The notes beneath the pieces were generated by a model that was given only the letters and a program-made list of their open reading frames with translations, was not told where the DNA came from and made no database searches. Below, piece after piece: positions 200 through 25,181 of a stretch of DNA of 39,400 bases. This DNA comes from an unicellular cyanobacterium SU3 (lineage in GTDB: Bacteria > Cyanobacteriota > Cyanobacteriia > Cyanobacteriales > Microcystaceae): positions 1-39,400 of the forward strand of contig NETF01000193.1 in the NCBI GenBank assembly GCA_002172675.1, written 5' to 3'. Both the position numbers and the translations under genes were made by a program. Numbering within the stretch: the stretch's first letter is position 1; each line of letters begins with the position of its first letter.

Positions 200-1654
200 A
201 TGAGGACAATCAACAAAGAAAAAGTTAATAATCAAAGTGAGAGTAAACAACTAGAATTATTCAACACTTCTAAACCGTTAGAATTAAATTTTATTCAAAA
301 AAAGTTTACTTTTATTGATTTTTTTGCAGGGATTGGAGGGTTTCGTATTCCTTTAGAAAAATTAGGAGGAAAATGTTTAGGTTATTCAGAGATTGATAAA
401 GAAGCAATTAAGGTTTATCAACAAAATTTTATTAGTTATTATAATACTCAAGAACTCAATTTAGGAGATATTTCGCAGATTAATGAGTTACCGAAAAATA
501 TTGATCTATTTGTGGGGGGAGTTCCTTGTCAACCTTGGTCTGTTGCAGGTAAATTAAAGGGATTTAATGATCCTAGGGGTCAACTGTGGTTTGATGTTAT
601 TAGATTGGTTAAAAAGTATCAACCGAAGGCTTTTATTTTTGAAAATGTTAAGGGATTAACAACAGGAAAAAATAAAGATAAATTAGACTATTTAGTAAAT
701 CAATTTGAAAACATTAATTATATTGTTAAATGGAAAGTCATCAATTCCTATGACTTTGGTGTTCCTCAAAATCGTGAACGAGTTTTTATTGTCGGTATTA
801 GAAAAGATCAAAAAAATTGTTACAATTATCAATTCCCAAAACCGTTAAAAGTTCAGACCAGATTATTAGATATTTTTGATGAACTTAAAAATTGTAAAGT
901 TGTTGAAAAAGTAAAATTAAATCCAGATATTCTATTTAATGGTAATATTCCTCCGTCTCGTAATCGATTTCAAAAAAATGATGAGTTAAATGACTTTTTT
1001 ACTTTTTCAGACCTTAGAAATGGTCATACAACGCTTCATTCTTGGGATTTAATCAAGACAACAAAGAAAGAGAAAATCATCTGTTTAACATTATTAAAGT
1101 ATAGAAGAAGTAAAAAATATGGTGAAAAAGATGGTAATCCTTTATCGTTTAAGGATTTAAAAGAATTAATTCCTCAATTGAAAGAATCTGATTTAACTAA
1201 ATTAGTGAATAAAAATATTTTGCGTATCATCAATAATAAGTATGAGTTTGTAAACTCAAAAAATAACTCAGGAATTAATGGGATTTATCGCATTTTCTTA
1301 CCTAATTCCGAGACAATTGGAACTTTAACAGCTACCGGCGCAAGGGATTTCTTTGCAACGGTTTCTATTAATGCTGATAATCCAGAAGAATATAAAAAGA
1401 AATTTATTCAAAAAATTTATAAACCTCAAAAATTTAAGCCTATAATGGCTAAACATTGCAGTAAATTACAAGGATTTCCAGATTGGTTTGAATATCATCA
1501 TAAAGATAGTATTGCAAAAAAGCAGTTTGGAAATTCAGTTCCTATTCCTGTTGTTTATCATCTGGCAAAAGAATTAATAAAATTGCTTACAAACAACGAC
1601 GTTAATCAAAAAAAATTATCAACTTCATTATCCTTGACAAATATCCCCCGATAG
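200..1654 (+). CDS. C5 cytosine-specific DNA methyltransferase
   Basis: Transfers a methyl group from S-adenosylmethionine to C5 of cytosine in a specific DNA site. The conserved blocks are in the usual order, numbered from the ATG at 200: motif I FIDFFAGIGGFR near residues 38-49, motif IV GGVPCQPWS with the catalytic Cys near 110, motif VI FENVKG near 148, motif VIII QNRERVFIVG near 195, and motif X KQFGNSVPIPVV near the C terminus. The long stretch between VIII and IX is the target-recognition domain. A TTG at 167 would add 11 residues, but it overlaps a TATAAT box, so ATG 200 is preferred (484 aa). No restriction endonuclease is visible beside it, so it looks like an orphan; the specificity cannot be read from the sequence. 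A CGATCG-type enzyme acting on the core of HIP1 is possible, but that is inference. Confidence 0.93.
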   Translation: MRTINKEKVNNQSESKQLELFNTSKPLELNFIQKKFTFIDFFAGIGGFRIPLEKLGGKCLGYSEIDKEAIKVYQQNFISYYNTQELNLGDISQINELPKNIDLFVGGVPCQPWSVAGKLKGFNDPRGQLWFDVIRLVKKYQPKAFIFENVKGLTTGKNKDKLDYLVNQFENINYIVKWKVINSYDFGVPQNRERVFIVGIRKDQKNCYNYQFPKPLKVQTRLLDIFDELKNCKVVEKVKLNPDILFNGNIPPSRNRFQKNDELNDFFTFSDLRNGHTTLHSWDLIKTTKKEKIICLTLLKYRRSKKYGEKDGNPLSFKDLKELIPQLKESDLTKLVNKNILRIINNKYEFVNSKNNSGINGIYRIFLPNSETIGTLTATGARDFFATVSINADNPEEYKKKFIQKIYKPQKFKPIMAKHCSKLQGFPDWFEYHHKDSIAKKQFGNSVPIPVVYHLAKELIKLLTNNDVNQKKLSTSLSLTNIPR

Positions 1655-1751
1655 TATCAACCAAGAAATCAACCATTTGGGTGAACTGTCAACCGCTTCC
1701 AATGATAAAATAGGTATAAGACGCAATTTTAAGTCAGGAAATATCAGTTTG

Positions 1752-2489
1752 GTGTTATCATCCATCATTGCCGATTTTCGTATTATTTTTGATCGTGACC
1801 CGGCAGCCCGTAATTGGCTGGAAGTTCTCTTCTGCTATCCTGGGTTACAAGCCATTATGCTGCATCGTATCGCCCATCGCATCTATAACCTAAAAATCCC
1901 TTTCTTTCCTCGTTTAATCTCCCATATTGGCAGATTTTTGACTGGGATCGAAATTCATCCAGGGGCAAAGATAGGTACTGGTGTATTTATTGACCACGGG
2001 ATGGGTGTGGTTATTGGTGAAACCGCCGAAGTCGGGGATTACAGTTTGATTTATCAGGGTGTCACCCTTGGGGGGACGGGGAAAGAAAGCGGTAAACGCC
2101 ATCCGAGTCTCGGCAAAAACGTCGTTGTCGGCGCAGGGGCGAAAGTTCTCGGCAATCTTAATATTGGTAATAATGTTAGGATTGGGGCGGGTTCTGTGGT
2201 ATTACGAGACGTTCCTTCTGATTGTACGGTTGTCGGTATTCCTGGGCGCATTGTTTATCAGTCTGGGGTGAGAGTTAACCCTCTAGAACATGGGAACTTA
2301 CCGGATTCCGAAGCGAAGGTTATTCGTTTATTATTAGATAGAATTGACAAGTTAGAACAGCAAGTTCAAGCGTTACAAGAAGATAAAGTAAAACAAAAGG
2401 AATTAGTCGCTAGTGGCGCGTCTAATACCGATTATAGTTGTTATTTAAAAGATAAAGAAATTGAGGAATTTCTGGGCGGTACTATGTAA
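1752..2489 (+). CDS. cysE: Serine O-acetyltransferase
   Basis: Acetylates L-serine with acetyl-CoA to O-acetylserine, the first step of cysteine synthesis. The N-terminal helical region (IADFRIIFDRDPAARNWLE) is followed by a left-handed beta-helix of hexapeptide repeats with the active-site stretch IDHGMGVVIGETAEVGD and the GGTGK loop, ending in VVGIPGR. A frame is open from TTG 1677, but the first 25 codons do not look like the family. GTG 1752, with AGGA about 12 bases upstream, gives 245 residues, the length I expect for cyanobacterial CysE. The C-terminal tail carries a short charged coiled coil (LLDRIDKLEQQVQALQ). It lies just downstream of the methyltransferase on the same strand, with no obvious functional link. 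Confidence 0.93.
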   Translation: MLSSIIADFRIIFDRDPAARNWLEVLFCYPGLQAIMLHRIAHRIYNLKIPFFPRLISHIGRFLTGIEIHPGAKIGTGVFIDHGMGVVIGETAEVGDYSLIYQGVTLGGTGKESGKRHPSLGKNVVVGAGAKVLGNLNIGNNVRIGAGSVVLRDVPSDCTVVGIPGRIVYQSGVRVNPLEHGNLPDSEAKVIRLLLDRIDKLEQQVQALQEDKVKQKELVASGASNTDYSCYLKDKEIEEFLGGTM

Positions 2490-2520
2490 TTTTTGATAGT
2501 TGATAATACCTGATTGTATG

Positions 2521-2548
2521 GTAGGGGTTAACGGTGGTTAGTCCCTAC
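2521..2548. terminator. GTAGG/CCTAC hairpin between convergent genes
   Basis: GTAGGGGTTAAC (2521-2532) and GTTAGTCCCTAC (2537-2548) form an imperfect 12-bp stem with a 4-base loop, followed by ATTTTTATT. It sits between the converging cysE and ABC-transporter genes, where a bidirectional terminator is expected. Near-identical stems occur at 9499 and 28594. Confidence 0.6.
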
Positions 2549-2555
2549 ATTTTTA

Positions 2556-4037
2556 TTAGGGTTTAATTCCCATCATTAATAAACCAATTTTTTCGACATC
2601 AGTATTAGGATCAAGGATATCCATAAACTTTCCTCTGTACATAATAGCTAAGCGATCGCTCATTTTTCTCACTTCTTCTAATTCGGTGGAAATATACAAA
2701 ATAGCTGTACCATTTTCTCTAGCTTTTAATAGTTGTTGTTGTATATATTCTGTGGCGACGATATCGAGTCCCCTAGTGGGTTGCATAGCAATAATTAATT
2801 GTGGATGATTGGCTAATTCACGGGCTAAAATAATTTTTTGTTGGTTTCCTCCTGATAGTTTTCCAACGGTAATATTAGGTTCAACGCCTCGAATATCAAA
2901 GTAATTAATGGCTTCATTTTCTACTTTTCTAATTGCTTTTTTTTGCAACATTCCCCATTTATTAAACGGATAAGAATTATATTGTTTTAAAATTAAGTTT
3001 TTACCAATGCTTAAAGATGATACTAATCCTGTTTTTTGTCTATCTTGAGGAATATAACCGATAGATAATTGTTTAATTATTTTTTCTTTTGTCCAGTTAG
3101 TAATATCAATATCTTTATATTGAATTTTACCCTGTTTAGCTTTAATCAAACCCATTATTACTGATACTAATTCCTGTTGTCCATTTCCATCAACGCCTGC
3201 TATTCCTAAAATTTCTCCTGCTTTTATTTTAAAAGAAATGTTATCAATATTTTTAACGACTAAGTTATCAACTTTTAAGATAGTTTCGGTATAAGATAAT
3301 CTTGTTTTAGTTAAATTGATTGTTTTATATTCCCCGATCATCATATTAGCTAATTTTTGAGGATTAAGATTTTTATTTTCAAAGGTATCGATAACTTTTC
3401 CTCTTCTTAAAATTGTTATCCAATCACATAATTTAATCACTTCTTCTAATTTATGACTAATAAAAATCATCGTATTACCTTCATTAACCAATTGACGTAA
3501 AATGTTAAAAAAGTTATCAATTTCAGCAGGGGTTAATACTGCAGTGGGTTCATCTAAAATTAATACTTTTGCCCCCCGATATAATACTTTTAATATTTCC
3601 ACTCTTTGTTGCATTCCAACTGAAATAGTTTCTACTTTAGCATCTAAATCAATTTCTAATTCATACTTATCAACTAATTGTTTAATTTCTACTCTTTTTT
3701 GTTTTAATTTTAGTCTATATTCTCCTTGTGTTCCTAAGATAATATTTTCTAACACAGATAATTGAGGAACCAGCATAAAATGTTGATGAATCATGCCAAT
3801 TCCTATATCAATCGCGCTTTTAGAAGAGTTGATTTTAACTAATTTATCGTTAATATAAATCTCTCCTTCATCGGGATAATATAATCCTGATAATATATTC
3901 ATTAATGTGGTTTTTCCTGCACCATTTTCTCCTAAAATAGCATGAATGGTTCCTTGATTAATTGTTAGAGAAATACTATTATTTGCAGTAAAAGTTCCGA
4001 ATTTTTTAGTAATATTTTTTAAACGTAATTCAACCAT
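2556..4037 (-). CDS. ABC transporter ATPase, nucleoside/simple-sugar type (double nucleotide-binding domain)
   Basis: Cytoplasmic ATPase with two fused nucleotide-binding domains, as in the ribose/nucleoside import family (RbsA, YufO/NupO). The first domain has Walker A GENGAGKTT near residue 38, signature ISVGMQQRVEILK and Walker B VLILDEPTAVLTP. The second has a degenerate Walker A (GVDGNGQQEL, lacking Lys-Thr), a good signature LSGGNQQKIILAREL and a weak Walker B (LIIAMQPTRGLD). A degenerate second site is normal for this family. The gene starts 7 bases after the substrate-binding lipoprotein gene and almost certainly shares its transcript. The two permease subunits such an importer needs are not adjacent: the next gene downstream is cysE on the opposite strand. 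The substrate is unknown; nucleosides or related purines are likely from the partner's family. Confidence 0.9.
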   Translation of the reverse strand: MVELRLKNITKKFGTFTANNSISLTINQGTIHAILGENGAGKTTLMNILSGLYYPDEGEIYINDKLVKINSSKSAIDIGIGMIHQHFMLVPQLSVLENIILGTQGEYRLKLKQKRVEIKQLVDKYELEIDLDAKVETISVGMQQRVEILKVLYRGAKVLILDEPTAVLTPAEIDNFFNILRQLVNEGNTMIFISHKLEEVIKLCDWITILRRGKVIDTFENKNLNPQKLANMMIGEYKTINLTKTRLSYTETILKVDNLVVKNIDNISFKIKAGEILGIAGVDGNGQQELVSVIMGLIKAKQGKIQYKDIDITNWTKEKIIKQLSIGYIPQDRQKTGLVSSLSIGKNLILKQYNSYPFNKWGMLQKKAIRKVENEAINYFDIRGVEPNITVGKLSGGNQQKIILARELANHPQLIIAMQPTRGLDIVATEYIQQQLLKARENGTAILYISTELEEVRKMSDRLAIMYRGKFMDILDPNTDVEKIGLLMMGIKP

Positions 4038-4044
4038 ATATTAG

Positions 4045-5136
4045 TTAAGAAACAGTTTGATTAACACAAAGGGTAGTTTCTCCATCTTCTTCGCAAGGTT
4101 CAAAAGTTATTTTGTTACTAACAATTTCTTCTTTTACATTATTAATTTTTGTGATCATTTCATCGGTAACAACTTCGTTAAATTCTCCTAAATATAAGAT
4201 GTCAGGATAATCTAAGCCTAAACTATAGACTTTACCTTCTAACTCATTTTTATTAGCTAACTCTGCTAAATAGTTAATAGCTAAATCTAACCGTTTAATG
4301 GGAGTAGTTAACACGGCTTCGGGGGCAATATTTAACTGATCTACTGTATTTCCAAAGGCATAAACACCCTTTTCTTGTGCTGTTTGTAATACTGCAGGAG
4401 AGGCATTATCTAACCATTGATAAACCACATCTGCACCGGAGGAAATCAAGGCTAAAGTGGCTTCTTTTGCCTTGGCTGCGTCATTCCAATCTCCTGTATA
4501 GGTAGAGATAATTTTAATATCGGGATTAATGGATTTTGCCCCTAATTCAAATCCCCTCAATTCTTCATCTGTTGCTTGAAAAGATTGGGCAGTAATATAG
4601 GCCATTTGATTACTTTTTGTCATCATTGCCCCTAACATTCCACATAGGTAACTTCCTTGTAAATGATCGATGCGTAAAGAGGCTATATTTTCCCCTTCTA
4701 CTGCCCCATTGACTCCGATAAAAAAGGTATCCCGAAATTGAGGAGCAACCTGTTGAATAGCAGCGTCAAATTGTCCCCCATGAGCATATACTAAATTATA
4801 ACCCCGTCGAGCAAAATCGGCTAAAGTTTCTGCTTGATAAGCCTGGGAAACTTGTTCAACATAAGCTATTTCTGCCCCTAGTTTTTCTTCAGTTAATTTA
4901 ACGCCTTCATAACCGGTTTGATTCCATACTTTATCGGTTATAATGCCAGGTAAAACAATAGCTACTTTTAAAGTTTCTGGGGTTTCTGTTGTTTCTTTTT
5001 CTTCGTTTGGAGAGGTAGAGTCTTCTAAATTTGTCGAAGTTGAATTATTGTTATTTCCACAAGCCTTTAAAATTAAGCTTCCTAATAAAGCTGAGGTAAA
5101 CCCTAAAAATTTTCTACGTTTTAATGATAATTTCAT
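4045..5136 (-). CDS. BMP/PnrA-family substrate-binding lipoprotein with Tat-type signal
   Basis: Substrate-binding component of the ABC importer encoded just downstream. The N terminus (LKRRKFLGFTSALLGSLILK then ACG) combines a twin-arginine motif RRKFLG with a lipobox ending in Cys near residue 26, so it should be exported folded and anchored as a lipoprotein. A low-complexity Asn/Ser/Thr/Glu linker follows, then a BMP fold (VAIVLPGIITDKVWNQTGYEG, VYAHGGQFDAAIQQ, ELRGFELGAKSINPDIK, DVVYQWLDNASPAV). The family (Med/BmpA/PnrA) binds nucleosides in studied members; the ligand here is inferred only. The lepB stop is 2 bases upstream, indicating a lepB-bmp-ATPase operon. Confidence 0.88.
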   Translation of the reverse strand: MKLSLKRRKFLGFTSALLGSLILKACGNNNNSTSTNLEDSTSPNEEKETTETPETLKVAIVLPGIITDKVWNQTGYEGVKLTEEKLGAEIAYVEQVSQAYQAETLADFARRGYNLVYAHGGQFDAAIQQVAPQFRDTFFIGVNGAVEGENIASLRIDHLQGSYLCGMLGAMMTKSNQMAYITAQSFQATDEELRGFELGAKSINPDIKIISTYTGDWNDAAKAKEATLALISSGADVVYQWLDNASPAVLQTAQEKGVYAFGNTVDQLNIAPEAVLTTPIKRLDLAINYLAELANKNELEGKVYSLGLDYPDILYLGEFNEVVTDEMITKINNVKEEIVSNKITFEPCEEDGETTLCVNQTVS

Positions 5137-21681: not shown

Positions 21682-21903
21682 CTACATTGAGGATTCTAAT
21701 TTAGAAAGAGGTGTTTCGGGGGATTTATTGAAAGCCTGACAATCAGCTAAATATTGATCAATCACAGTTTGAAAAGCTTGTTTTAATTCATCTACAGAAA
21801 GACCATCAAAAACGATTATATCTTCTATGTTGATTACCCGACCAAAAAATAACTGATCTTCTTCATCATATTCAATGACTGCTTCATATCCTTTGTATTT
21901 CAT
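21682..21903 (-). CDS. hicB: HicB-family antitoxin
   Basis: A 73-residue protein with the HicB partial RNase-H-like fold: MKYKGYEAVIEYDEEDQLFF, GRVINIEDIIVFDGLSVDEL and KQAFQTVIDQYLADC. It should bind and neutralise the toxin encoded just upstream, whose stop codon overlaps its start by 4 bases (ATGA). No clear C-terminal DNA-binding domain is visible, so it is the short form. Antitoxin function is inferred from family and arrangement. Confidence 0.82.
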   Translation of the reverse strand: MKYKGYEAVIEYDEEDQLFFGRVINIEDIIVFDGLSVDELKQAFQTVIDQYLADCQAFNKSPETPLSKLESSM

Positions 21904-22154
21904 GGGTTAATTCCTGCTTTAATTAAAAATTCACGAACTGCTTTCACTTGGTATCTTTTTAATTCTTTTTGAGGATGAGGAGAATGAATATTGAGAGAAA
22001 TATTATTAAAATCAAATCTAACTCTCGAACCATCCCCTTGAGTGACTTTTTCTCCTATGGCTTTGATTAATGTTACTACATCATCCCAAATAATATTATG
22101 TCTAATGGGTTCTGCAAAGATAGCATCATAAGTTTTACGCTGTTTTTTTTTCAT
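21900..22154 (-). CDS. hicA: HicA-family mRNA-interferase-like toxin
   Basis: 84-residue basic protein. The fold signature is the segment GDGSRVRFDFNNISLNIHSP followed by HPQKELKRYQVKAVREFLIK, with a double-stranded-RNA-binding-like layout. In the classic subfamily the catalytic His sits in a G-S-H turn; here that turn reads GSR and a His is found later in IHSPHP, as in the longer HicA subgroup. The gene precedes hicB with a 4-base overlap. Inferred to cut mRNA when free of HicB. Confidence 0.8.
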   Translation of the reverse strand: MKKKQRKTYDAIFAEPIRHNIIWDDVVTLIKAIGEKVTQGDGSRVRFDFNNISLNIHSPHPQKELKRYQVKAVREFLIKAGINP

Positions 22155-22198: not shown

Positions 22199-22471
22199 CT
22201 ATAATTTTTTCAATAATTTATCATATTCGCTATGCTTTCCTATCCAAAACCAAACGATTGTATCTGATGTTTTCATGACTCCTACAGCACGCCAACCGAT
22301 TCCTACTCTTACAGAACATACATTTTCTCTGGTGTTAAGTCTCTTGAACTCTAAACTGGGATGTGTTGGGTTTTCTTTCCAAAGTTTATAGTTTTTTCGT
22401 GCCGTTTGTTTAACTGTTTCGGGTAGTTTTGCAAAACATTGTAAGAAGTCATCTGTTAATTCTGACTTCAT
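22199..22471 (-). CDS. RelE/ParE-like toxin A
   Basis: 90-residue protein with the RelE/ParE-superfamily pattern: helices (LPETVKQTARKNYKLW), then strands with SLEFKRLN, YSVRV-type CSVRVGIGWRAVGV, and a closing IVWFWIGKHSEYDKLLKKL. The D-x-Y ending is common in these toxins. Its ATG overlaps the antitoxin stop by 4 bases (22468-22471), the antitoxin-first order usual for many RelE/ParE systems. Toxin B (23075-24555) is a clear paralogue. Ribosome-dependent mRNA cleavage versus gyrase poisoning cannot be told from the sequence. Confidence 0.8.
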   Translation of the reverse strand: MKSELTDDFLQCFAKLPETVKQTARKNYKLWKENPTHPSLEFKRLNTRENVCSVRVGIGWRAVGVMKTSDTIVWFWIGKHSEYDKLLKKL

Positions 22472-22689
22472 ATTTCATCAAACCCTATTTTCTTGGTTTT
22501 TCCTTGAGATGATTCATTTAAAGCTTTTTTTGCTAATTCGTCTAAAAAAGAACTTTGAGGTTGTTCTAAAGTTTCTTGCCATTGCTGTTCATCTTTTAGT
22601 TCATCCATCCAACGAGAAACTATAGCATCTTGTTGATCGGGGGGAAGTTTTTTGAGTTCTGTTATCACTTTTTCGAGAAGTTCAGTCAT
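22468..22689 (-). CDS. Antitoxin A of the RelE/ParE-like pair
   Basis: 73 residues, beginning MTELLEKVITELKKLPPDQQ followed by DAIVSRWMDELKDEQQW. This half is almost identical to antitoxin B (24552-24782). The second half (LEQPQSSFLDELAKKALNES) differs and probably contacts the cognate toxin. It belongs to a small helical family often found upstream of RelE-like toxins in cyanobacteria. Its gene comes first in the module. Confidence 0.75.
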   Translation of the reverse strand: MTELLEKVITELKKLPPDQQDAIVSRWMDELKDEQQWQETLEQPQSSFLDELAKKALNESSQGKTKKIGFDEI

Positions 22690-22747
22690 AGGTTTTAGGG
22701 GATAATGTGTTTATAATTGTAACTAAATAATAATCTTAATTTAAGAT

Positions 22748-22964: not shown

Positions 22965-23365
22965 GATTAATTTCCTATAGAATCAAGATTGATGAACTCG
23001 TAAGGTGTACAGATAAATGGGAGATTGTACCCAAAATCACGGCTAATTGCACATAAGTTGGATTTTACTAGAACTTACAATCTTTTTAACAATTCATCAT
23101 ATTCATCGTGTGTCCCGATCCAAAACCAATAAATGTGATCGCCTTCTAATAATCCTAAAACACGATAATTCAAACTGACACGCACTGAATAAATAGGTTG
23201 ACGTTGACTCACTCGTTTGAACTGTAAACTGTTGTGATAGGGATCTTTATCCCAAAGTTTGTATGCTTTTTCGGCCTGTTTTTGTACAGTTTCGGGAAGT
23301 TGGTTAAGTTGTTTACGAAATGGGTTGAGTCGAGTGGAGGTATTATCCTCCGACCCTCTCATTTA

Positions 23366-23399
23366 GATCCGGACGTGCGTATTTCTACGCATCCGGCTC
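23366..23399 (-). ncRNA. Group II intron domain V
   Basis: 34 bases on the minus strand starting GAGCCGGATGCG and ending GCACGTCCGGATC, with a GAAA-type tetraloop (TAGAAATA). The AGC catalytic triad is at positions 2-4. The length and pairing are exact for domain V, the catalytic heart of the ribozyme. It starts 9 bases after the RT stop codon, the normal position. Confidence 0.88.
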
Positions 23400-23407
23400 C
23401 CGACAAA

Positions 23408-24304
23408 TTAGACTTTTCCAGTCTTGCCCATGTGGATGAATTGGTGACAGCTATGATGGACTGCTACTAAGTTTTTAGGCTTCCAATTATCGTGATTTCC
23501 GTCTATGTGATGAAGGTGAACCCTCTCATCGTCCATAAACTTTAGTCCACAATGTCCGCATGAATGGTCTTGCCTTTTCAGGCATTTAGAGGTTGCTCCG
23601 TCATAGAGTTTGCTGTTACGCTTGCTCCAATAAACTTCATCTCCGTCGTAGGGTGATTTATCTCCTTTGACATTGATGTGGCGATTTTCACTGTATGGTA
23701 TTGCTGGAAAAGCCTTCTTGATAAGCCCTGTTGCCGTGTATCGGTTCAGTTTCTTCTCTTTATTGAAGACTATAAATGCTCTGTGTGTTGTTCTCCATAG
23801 GGAGAAGCGAGAGCCGTCCATTTTGCAATACCTGTGGTAGTTTCGCCATCCTCTAACTAGGGGGGCTAATTTCGTAGCTTTGACCCTAGCACCATAATTC
23901 GAGCAGTTGACGATATTTTTGACTTTCTGACGGAATGCTTTGTAGTTATCCTCTGATGGGACACATCTAAACTTTCCGTTGGTTTGCACCTTAAAGTGCC
24001 ATCCTAGAAAATCAAATCCATCTGTCGCTTTGACAAGCTTGGTTTTCTTTTCACTTACCTTTAATCCTCGGACTGTCAAGAACTCTTGTATGTCTTTGAG
24101 TATCTTGTCTGCATCGTCATTAGGCTTTAGGATTACCACCATATCGTCCGCATAACGGATGCTGTAATGGATATCCTCTATGCCGTCCAATGCGATGTTA
24201 GCTAATAGTGGACTCACCACCCCCCTTTGGGGGGTTCCTTGTTCTGGAAATTCTGGGTTGACCCCTGCCTTTAGGCATCTCCATTCTAGGTTCTGTTTCA
24301 TCAT
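23408..24304 (-). pseudogene. ltrA: Group II intron reverse transcriptase/maturase, N-terminally truncated
   Basis: 298 residues covering the C-terminal half of an intron-encoded protein. It starts just before the RT block GTPQRGVVSPLLANIALDGI, then the catalytic SIRYADDMVVI, GFDFLGWHF, the maturase domain X (KATKLAPLVRGWRNYHRYCK), and an HNH endonuclease with CGHCGLKF and HLHHIDGNHDNWKPKNL. RT blocks 0-3 and the usual N terminus are missing, so it cannot promote mobility alone. The ATG-ATG at 24304 is probably internal to the original gene. Confidence 0.87.
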
Positions 24305-24551
24305 GGGGACTCCTGTAACGCCAGTGCTACCAGCAGTTGGTATCTGATTGCGTCCTATTCCCAGCTTCAGCCTCCAAAATTCCGAGTTTGGTCACTGTGG
24401 GTAGGTCTTGAGTCACGTTTAACCTTAACGGAGAGGACTTGCACCTCCATCAATCGGACAGTTATCATCTAGCTTTAGGCTAGAAACCTCGATTTATAAG
24501 CTTTTCGGCTATTTCGTCGAGAACGAATCGCACTTTTTGTAACACTCGATT

Positions 24552-24782
24552 TCATGAGTTAACTGGAAAAATTTTGTCTAATGGTGTTGTTTCACCATTG
24601 CTGATTTCTTGTCGAACCATTTCAGCTAAGTTATCCCATTGTTCATCAGTGGTTGATTCAAACCTTTCTGTCCATTGCTGTTCATCTTTTAGTTCATCCA
24701 TCCAACGAGAAGCGATCGCATCTTGTTGATCAGGGGGAAGTTTTTTGAGTTCTGTGATGACTTTTTCGAGAAGTTCAGTCAT
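24552..24782 (-). CDS. Antitoxin B of the RelE/ParE-like pair
   Basis: 76 residues beginning MTELLEKVITELKKLPPDQQ and DAIASRWMDELKDEQQW, matching antitoxin A at all but one of the first 37 positions. The C-terminal half (ERFESTTDEQWDNLAEMVRQ) differs fully, as expected if it is matched to a different toxin. At the DNA level the copies also differ at a HIP1 site: this gene has GCGATCGC at about 24713, antitoxin A has a variant. The stop overlaps the toxin B ATG by 4 bases. Confidence 0.78.
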   Translation of the reverse strand: MTELLEKVITELKKLPPDQQDAIASRWMDELKDEQQWTERFESTTDEQWDNLAEMVRQEISNGETTPLDKIFPVNS

Positions 24783-24805
24783 AGGTTTTAGAGAATGATA
24801 TATGG

Positions 24806-24997
24806 TTAGTTACTTAGTTTTGTTCTAAAAATTTTTTCCATTTCTTCTGGAGGTAAATCGGGAGAGTGGCCTGTATTTTGATCTAAATCACTTAACTTTT
24901 CAAAGAAAATCTCCCAAGCTTCCTGGTTATTTCTGTCCGATAAAAGGTGTTTTTTGAGTTCAGCACGGGTCATATTTCTATAGTTGGGTTTCGTCAT
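24806..24997 (-). CDS. DUF6887-like small protein
   Basis: 63 residues from ATG 24997, beginning MTKPNYRNMTRAELKKHLLS and ending with acidic DLPPEEMEKIFRTKL. GGAGG sits about 8 bases before that ATG, so it is chosen over an upstream in-frame Met at 25024. The first 20 bases overlap the end of the next upstream gene. The sequence resembles a small cyanobacterial family (DUF6887) found beside DUF6888; the name is recalled, not checked. The function is unknown. Size, overlap and position in a toxin-antitoxin island suggest half of a pair. Confidence 0.65.
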   Translation of the reverse strand: MTKPNYRNMTRAELKKHLLSDRNNQEAWEIFFEKLSDLDQNTGHSPDLPPEEMEKIFRTKLSN

Positions 24998-25181
24998 CAA
25001 TAAACCTCCAAATTCCATTGGCAAAAATTACAACTTGTAATTCTTCATTATTTTCGTTTCTAGCCAAAATAAAAATAGTTTTAAAGTTTGAATCATAGCG
25101 AAATAAATAAATTTGCTGATAGAGATTTGATAACATTTGACAAACTTTTACACAGCTTAACGCTTGTTCTACTGTTGGCAA
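24978..25181 (-). CDS. DUF6888-like small protein
   Basis: 67 residues: MPTVEQALSCVKVCQMLSNL, then YQQIYLFRYDSNFKTIFILA and VVIFANGIWRFID. It looks like one alpha-helical segment followed by a small beta-sheet, a size and layout reminiscent of RelE-like folds but without recognisable catalytic residues. It overlaps the DUF6887-like gene by 20 bases. Function unknown; a toxin-antitoxin role is inferred only from context. Confidence 0.62.
   Translation of the reverse strand: MPTVEQALSCVKVCQMLSNLYQQIYLFRYDSNFKTIFILARNENNEELQVVIFANGIWRFIDDETQL

What the first reader, a model, noticed from the sequence alone, without database searches (positions are those of the whole stretch)
23075..24555. Toxin gene split by a group II intron while its antitoxin is intact
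Exon 1 (7 codons plus one base) and exon 2 rejoin to an 89-residue toxin aligned end to end with the neighbouring toxin A. The intron begins GTGCG and carries a perfect domain V. It has lost much of its 5' domains and RT N terminus, so it may have silenced the toxin for good, or may still splice with help from a full intron elsewhere.
Basis: seen in the sequence. Interest (0 to 1): 0.8.

Follow-up and report, generated by a model that had tools for sequence, protein, structure and literature searches.

The report
Dead group II intron in toxin gene
In a cyanobacterium, a mobile self-splicing intron landed cleanly in a toxin-antitoxin toxin gene and has since lost the part of itself needed to recognise its own ends, so the toxin is most likely switched off for good while its antitoxin survives; this is a clear but fairly ordinary case of gene decay.

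Summary
Toxin B (ParE_like) is split by a 1,211-nt group II intron (24533..23323, minus strand). Cyanothece sp. BG0011 has the same gene uninterrupted: the insertion is clean, without target duplication or loss.

The intron has a good domain V/VI (Rfam 52.9 bits) but lacks 936-939 nt present in 8 of 10 measured same-genus relatives (925 nt in the other 2). From 14 copies I located EBS1 and EBS2; both lie in the missing stretch. Of 122 base pairs predicted for the first ~540 nt, 37 survive, 27 are split, 58 are gone. A helper maturase alone should therefore not rescue splicing.

The family can probably splice: at one site, seen in two relatives, a full-length copy sits in frame in the inorganic pyrophosphatase gene. 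Exon 2 is still conserved (dN 0.010, dS 0.42), so the loss looks recent. Toxin decay with antitoxin kept is common here: 13 of 75 distinct orthologues carry in-frame stops, BG0011's included.

Best reading: a recently killed toxin gene. Splicing complemented by RNA in trans is unlikely but not excluded.

The parts
24552..24782 (-). antitoxin B gene, open, 76 aa; overlaps the toxin start codon by ATGA
   Evidence: 87% identical over 76 aa in BG0011, no stop
24534..24555 (-). toxin B exon 1 (7 codons + 1 base)
   Evidence: matches L125 up to 2998; in the model of an intact orthologue residues 2-5 form a beta strand, block mean pLDDT 94
23323..24533 (-). group II intron with internal deletion, 1,211 nt, GTGCG...TCAACC
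   Evidence: clean insertion relative to BG0011; family copies share both ends
24284..24533 (-). retained first 250 nt of the intron (first part of domain I, without EBS1 and EBS2)
24283..24284 (-). deletion junction (to within a base or two): 936-939 nt more in 8 of 10 measured same-genus copies, 925 in 2, and 947 and 928 in two copies from other families
   Evidence: 13 copies given, 12 gave both sides
23408..24304 (-). remnant of the intron-encoded protein, 298 aa: 7 codons of former domain I sequence fused to the C-terminal part of the RT, maturase domain and HNH-like end (the last named by eye); QRG where 13 of 13 relatives have QGG
23324..23401 (-). domains V and VI of the intron
   Evidence: Rfam RF00029, 52.9 bits, full model
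23075..23322 (-). toxin B exon 2 (to stop codon)
   Evidence: PF24732 ParE_like E 5e-12 for the ORF that holds it; 93% DNA identity to BG0011
23075..23362 (-). unspliced ORF of 95 aa that starts at an ATG at the base of domain VI and runs in frame into exon 2
   Evidence: its model lacks the first strand, residues 1-11 pLDDT below 50
22199..22471 (-). toxin A, open paralogue (ParE_like)
   Evidence: PF24732 E 1.8e-8
22468..22689 (-). antitoxin A; its 5' half resembles antitoxin B, unlike the orthologue in BG0011

Best explanation
A chloroplast-like group II intron of a family widespread in this genus inserted cleanly into codon 8 of a ParE/RelE-like toxin gene. While full length it could have spliced out and left the toxin working (inferred). 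An internal deletion of about 937 nt, formed during insertion or later, removed EBS1, EBS2, the rest of domain I, the stretch up to the ORF and the RT N terminus. The remnant should no longer splice, even with a maturase from elsewhere, so ribosomes that start at the toxin ATG stop after 26 codons and the toxin is silenced. The antitoxin upstream is untouched and is left without its partner. Shown: clean insertion, deletion, loss of EBS1 and EBS2, conserved exon 2, frequent stops in the toxin of relatives. Inferred: no splicing, no toxin activity, recent date.
For: Uninterrupted gene in BG0011 with adjacent match ends and the same genes downstream. Full-length relatives. EBS1 at one alignment column, 80% complementary to the last 6 exon bases over 14 copies (mean over columns 33%, sd 6.8%; second best 58%), EBS2 at another, 77% (mean 33%, sd 8.1%; second best 60%); both missing here. 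Predicted structure from 9 copies: 122 pairs, 74 with compensatory changes; 37 kept, 27 split, 58 lost. Reading without splicing stops after 26 residues. Family splicing inferred from an in-frame insertion in inorganic pyrophosphatase, one site in two relatives. Exon 2: dN 0.010, dS 0.42 (NG86) or 0.012, 0.28 (YN00). 13 of 75 distinct toxin orthologues have in-frame stops, 14 stops at 13 positions; an antitoxin match without stop was found beside 10 of the 13. A review says the majority of bacterial intron copies are truncated or inactivated (PMC4424553, passages).
Against: No RNA evidence either way. Exon 2 and the IEP remnant show no relaxed selection (dN/dS 0.02-0.04 and about 0.1), as expected if the event is recent but also if some product is still used. 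An ATG in domain VI gives an in-frame 95-aa ORF. Only one site of the 11 copies tested clearly interrupts a cellular gene in frame, so the family's splicing in vivo rests on little. The deletion rests on one draft assembly of 208 contigs.
Confidence: 0.85

Rival explanations
1. The toxin domain is still made without splicing: translation starts at the ATG in domain VI (23362) and yields a 95-aa protein whose first residues come from the intron, perhaps weakly toxic or only antitoxin-binding.
For: ORF of 95 aa open and in frame with exon 2; it still matches PF24732; exon 2 conserved; most of the predicted core has pLDDT 70-90 (69 of 95 residues).
Against: Exon 1 encodes a conserved start; in the model of an intact orthologue residues 2-5 are a strand (block mean pLDDT 94), which the 95-aa model lacks (residues 1-11 below 50). 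Other copies of the intron carry the same ATG whatever follows them, so it is not special to this site. No clear ribosome-binding site by eye.
Confidence: 0.1
2. The gap is filled in trans: RNA from a full-length sibling supplies the missing part of domain I and the following domains, and the toxin mRNA is still spliced, like tripartite psaA intron 1 of Chlamydomonas.
For: Layout resembles psaA intron 1: part of domain I on exon 1, the rest missing, domains V and VI with exon 2 (PMC7912774, passages). Four loci in this genome hold related intron proteins in open frames of 605-655 aa (C191, C174, C13, C171). Engineered pieces of a bacterial intron splice in trans (PMC7912774 and PMC4424553, passages).
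Against: A 2015 review knew no trans-splicing intron in bacteria (PMC4424553, passages). At DNA level only C46, C32 and the window itself match the first part of domain I in this assembly, apart from 35 nt on C204. C46's EBS1 fits its own exon, not this one, and C32 has an internal deletion or misjoin of its own. Copies hidden in assembly gaps cannot be ruled out.
Confidence: 0.03
3. Assembly artefact: the strain carries a full-length intron here and the assembler skipped the middle.
For: Draft of 208 contigs; several contigs end inside related introns.
Against: The arms are only 66-86% identical to other copies in this assembly over matches of 83 nt or more, and the junction shares only about 1 nt, so a repeat-driven misjoin is unlikely.
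Confidence: 0.04

Closest known systems
Thermosynechococcus elongatus introns TeI3/TeI4 (PMC2882425, passages read)
   Same: Cyanobacterial multi-copy introns, many with a large internal deletion; best solved relative of the IEP remnant is 6me0 chain C, E 2.8e-34 (that this entry is a T. elongatus group IIB intron is recalled)
   Different: The TeI3 deletion of about 1.5 kb lies in domain IVb, so those introns splice and move with an IEP from elsewhere; here the deletion takes half of domain I and both EBS
Truncated or inactivated group II intron copies in bacteria (PMC4424553, passages read)
   Same: Inactivated copy, the majority state in bacteria according to that review
   Different: Both ends and a clean empty site are preserved, and the host gene is a toxin with an open antitoxin gene
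Chlamydomonas psaA intron 1 with tscA RNA (PMC7912774, passages read)
   Same: Similar parts present and missing in cis
   Different: No candidate third RNA with fitting EBS found in this assembly; no RNA evidence
Orphan antitoxins left by toxin decay (PMC7354431, passages read)
   Same: Antitoxin open, partner toxin broken
   Different: Here broken by an intron; in the sister strain BG0011 by a stop codon

Membership tests
Group II intron (bacterial, mobile) | 5' end GUGYG | tested here: met
   GTGCG at 24533; GTGCG start found in 10 of 18 family loci, and in 5 of the 8 others a start read as GTGTG (3) or GTATG (2) with a looser pattern
Group II intron (bacterial, mobile) | domain V | tested here: met
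   Rfam RF00029 52.9 bits, full model, one non-standard pair
Group II intron (bacterial, mobile) | 3' end AY | tested here: not met
   ends ACC by the empty site; 21 of 22 other copies end ACC at this place, 1 ends AAC
Group II intron (bacterial, mobile) | domain I with EBS1 and EBS2 | tested here: not met
   both lie in the deleted part
Group II intron (bacterial, mobile) | complete intron-encoded RT/maturase | tested here: not met
   RVT_1 from profile position 112 on only; TIGR04416 130 bits, cut-off 300
Group II intron (bacterial, mobile) | insertion without target-site duplication | tested here: met
   adjacent match ends in BG0011
Group II intron (bacterial, mobile) | splicing in vivo | not testable with these tools
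   no RNA data; filed as a derelict descendant of a group II intron, not as a functional one
ParE/RelE superfamily type II toxin | sequence match | tested here: met
   PF24732 E 5e-12 for the ORF that holds exon 2; no NCBIfam or PADLOC match at E 0.01
ParE/RelE superfamily type II toxin | RelE/ParE fold | tested here: met
   model of an intact orthologue (L130), not of toxin B itself, matches 3bpq_B (RelE) E 1.6e-5, TM 0.72
ParE/RelE superfamily type II toxin | toxicity neutralised by the adjacent protein | not testable with these tools
   antitoxin B has no Pfam, NCBIfam or PADLOC match at the thresholds used

The most novel reading that the evidence does not exclude
A naturally gapped bacterial group II intron: the cis copy keeps the start of domain I and domains V-VI, and sibling intron RNA fills the gap in trans, so that toxin output depends on the mobile family being present elsewhere in the genome.
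Probability: 0.03. Interest if true: 0.88.

Novelty: new member of a known kind. Interest (0 to 1): 0.27.

Why it matters
It is a clean example, with the empty site known, of how a mobile intron that may have been harmless while it spliced becomes a null allele once it loses exon recognition, here in a toxin whose loss is tolerated because the antitoxin stays. The same toxin is broken by another route in the sister strain, and a full-length copy of the same family in a pyrophosphatase gene offers a natural control for splicing. If splicing complemented by RNA in trans were found, it would be a first for bacteria as far as the 2015 review goes.

Tried and rejected
Native coding DNA mistaken for an intron: rejected, the BG0011 gene lacks the insert. 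Rescue by a helper maturase alone, as for the T. elongatus ORF-less introns: rejected on structure, because their deletion lies in domain IV (PMC2882425 passages) and this one takes half of domain I. A mini-intron that spreads in its deleted form: no listed match crosses the junction in the own genome (all 27 candidates scored) or in 59 relatives (where at most 7 candidates per genome were scored, so copies can have been missed). Fold of the remnant 5' part with its exon: no better than shuffles (z -0.59, 27 of 100 shuffles as good), uninformative alone. Sign of long decay in the IEP remnant: not found. Against 6 close copies it has 9 private codon changes that alter the residue and 30 that do not; the other six range from 7:5 to 13:30. 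Left out of that count: 5 more distant same-genus copies (with all 11 the window has 3:7), G007C322 (only 59 residues aligned), G053C10 (another family), and G037C35, which the script did not recover.

Papers: searches. Their listings (not all hits are listed) show no title about a group II intron in a toxin-antitoxin toxin; only passages of PMC2882425, PMC8919778, PMC4424553, PMC7354431 and PMC7912774 were read. PMC8919778 reports that about 30% of 1,949 representative intron proteins were incomplete.

Limits of counts: the 75 distinct orthologues at 65% identity or more come from 109 loci (29, 80), found by similarity to exon 2; many are MAGs, so some stops may be sequencing errors. 7 of the 75 aligned only partly. 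One further locus, L128, has a stop in the stretch before exon 2 and is not among the 13. L096 and L125 are the same strain (identical over 3,246 nt), counted once in the 75 but twice in the residue tally. In the EBS test two G007 copies have the same exon end and a third nearly so, so the 14 are not independent.

Full report
What is there. On the minus strand an open 76-aa antitoxin gene (24782-24552) overlaps the start of a ParE/RelE-like toxin gene (ATG at 24555) by ATGA. The toxin gene is interrupted after 22 nt by a group II intron, 24533-23323, and resumes at 23322-23075. The ORF that holds exon 2 matches Pfam ParE_like with E 5e-12, and so does the neighbouring toxin A (1.8e-8). Rfam finds domains V/VI at 23401-23324 with 52.9 bits over the whole model, one pair being non-standard. 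The genome holds at least 19 such matches (150 of 228 candidates scored).

Empty site. A search of named genomes with exon 2 alone returned Cyanothece sp. BG0011 first, 96% identical. BLAST of the unaltered window region gives two matches that end and begin at adjacent BG0011 bases, 2998 and 2999. Downstream the order is the same: toxin A, a 73-aa gene and a 220-aa gene; upstream of the antitoxin BG0011 has a different ORF of 334 aa, so synteny holds on one side only. Such a clean insertion is how group II introns insert (general knowledge). The unnamed same-genus genome G006 is the same strain as BG0011 (identical over 3,246 nt), so it is not independent evidence. BG0011's own toxin copy has an in-frame stop, so toxin B is broken there too, by another route.

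The missing piece. Same-genus genomes hold full-length copies of the family: 10 of 11 copies measured are 2.1-2.3 kb and one is 4.5 kb; 12 of 13 have an open RT segment of 491-573 aa, one of 321 aa. Compared with them the window copy keeps intron positions 1-250 and then continues inside the RT gene: 8 of 10 same-genus copies measured have 936-939 nt more here, 2 have 925, and two copies from other families 947 and 928 (a thirteenth gave no 5' match). The junction shows about 1 nt of shared sequence. The remnant ORF begins with 7 codons of former domain I sequence and carries an arginine at a glycine of the QGTPQGG motif present in 13 of 13 relatives.

Consequences for splicing. For 14 copies with a readable 5' exon I scored complementarity of the exon end to every column of the intron alignment. 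The last 6 exon bases peak at one column (80%; mean 33%, sd 6.8%, next best 58%), bases -12 to -8 at another (77%; mean 33%, sd 8.1%, next best 60%). I take these as EBS1 and EBS2; both lie in the deleted stretch. A consensus fold of 9 copies gives 122 pairs, 74 with compensatory changes. 37 keep both partners in the window copy, 27 lost one and 58 lost both. A maturase in trans cannot supply these parts. RNA in trans could in principle, as in Chlamydomonas psaA intron 1 (PMC7912774, passages), but a 2015 review knew no bacterial case (PMC4424553, passages), and among family loci found at DNA level in this assembly only C46 could be full length. C46's contig ends inside the intron, and its EBS1 does not fit this exon (pairing judged by eye).

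The family can probably splice. In G005 and G003 full-length copies interrupt the inorganic pyrophosphatase gene in frame at the same site. The downstream exon of G005 matches PF00719 with E 2.1e-49 from profile position 18 on, and the G003 flanks read the same protein. The upstream 61-aa piece alone gave no Pfam match. This site also supports the 3' boundary. Among the 11 copies it is the only clear interruption of a cellular gene; G037C35 seems to sit in another RT gene (by eye) and the others do not show long open frames on both sides.

When. Exon 2 differs from BG0011 in 14 codons, of which 2 are replacements and 1 the stop; dN 0.010 and dS 0.42 over 80 codons by NG86, 0.012 and 0.28 by YN00, stop-codon column left out. 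At one of the two replacement sites the window has the rare residue (T; 62 of 73 loci have S). The IEP remnant has dN/dS of 0.08-0.11 against six close copies. Both suggest that toxin and intron lost function recently or, less likely, that something is still selected. Antitoxin B evolves faster than the toxin in this comparison (dN 0.066, dS 0.157, NG86).

Context of toxin loss. Of 75 distinct orthologues at 65% identity or more, 13 have in-frame stops, 14 stops at 13 positions. An antitoxin match without a stop lies upstream in 10 of these 13, one has an antitoxin match with stops, and in two none was found. Losing this toxin and keeping the antitoxin is therefore recurrent, and the intron is one route among several.

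Possible residual product. An ATG in domain VI opens a 95-aa frame into exon 2 (23362-23075). AlphaFold2 gives mean pLDDT 80 with residues 1-11 below 50 for this ORF, against 93 for an intact orthologue in which residues 2-5 form the first strand. The closest solved folds of that orthologue are RelE toxins (3bpq, 1wmi). An unspliced product would lack that strand, so I give a working toxin from this start a low chance.

Verdict. The mechanism is most likely plain inactivation: an intron that could once be spliced out, crippled by an internal deletion. It is a new member of a known kind.

Noticed in passing
window 22468-22720 compared with 24552-24813 and L125 2720-3547: Antitoxin A of the window has a 5' half nearly identical to antitoxin B, while BG0011's antitoxin A has a different 5' half with a similar 3' half: looks like gene conversion or recombination between the two antitoxin genes.
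   Followed up: partly
L087 (G000:C32) 1-487 and L088 (G000:C110) 1-138: Two more defective copies of the family in the same genome: C32 joins intron position about 436 to about 1152, and C110 starts at about 1140 after unrelated DNA. Their last ~126 nt are the same and both lie at contig ends, so template jumping during reverse transcription or an assembly effect.
   Followed up: partly
L082 (G053:C10) 1095-3411: One intron copy of the family appears inserted into another at about intron position 160, twintron-like.
   Followed up: no
L078 (G002:C90) 2723-5103: An intron copy with about 2.4 kb of extra DNA inside the RT gene, possibly another nested element.
   Followed up: no
L084 (G005:C213), L086 (G003:C46): Full-length introns at the same site in the inorganic pyrophosphatase gene (probably essential, recalled) of two relatives: natural test case for splicing.
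   Followed up: partly
22 intron 3' ends: The family reads TCAACC at its 3' end in 19 of 22 copies rather than the usual AY.
   Followed up: partly
window 24806-25181 and 21900-22154: DUF6887 and DUF6888 genes stand side by side just upstream of the antitoxin, and a HicA-like gene lies downstream: a stretch packed with small genes.
   Followed up: no
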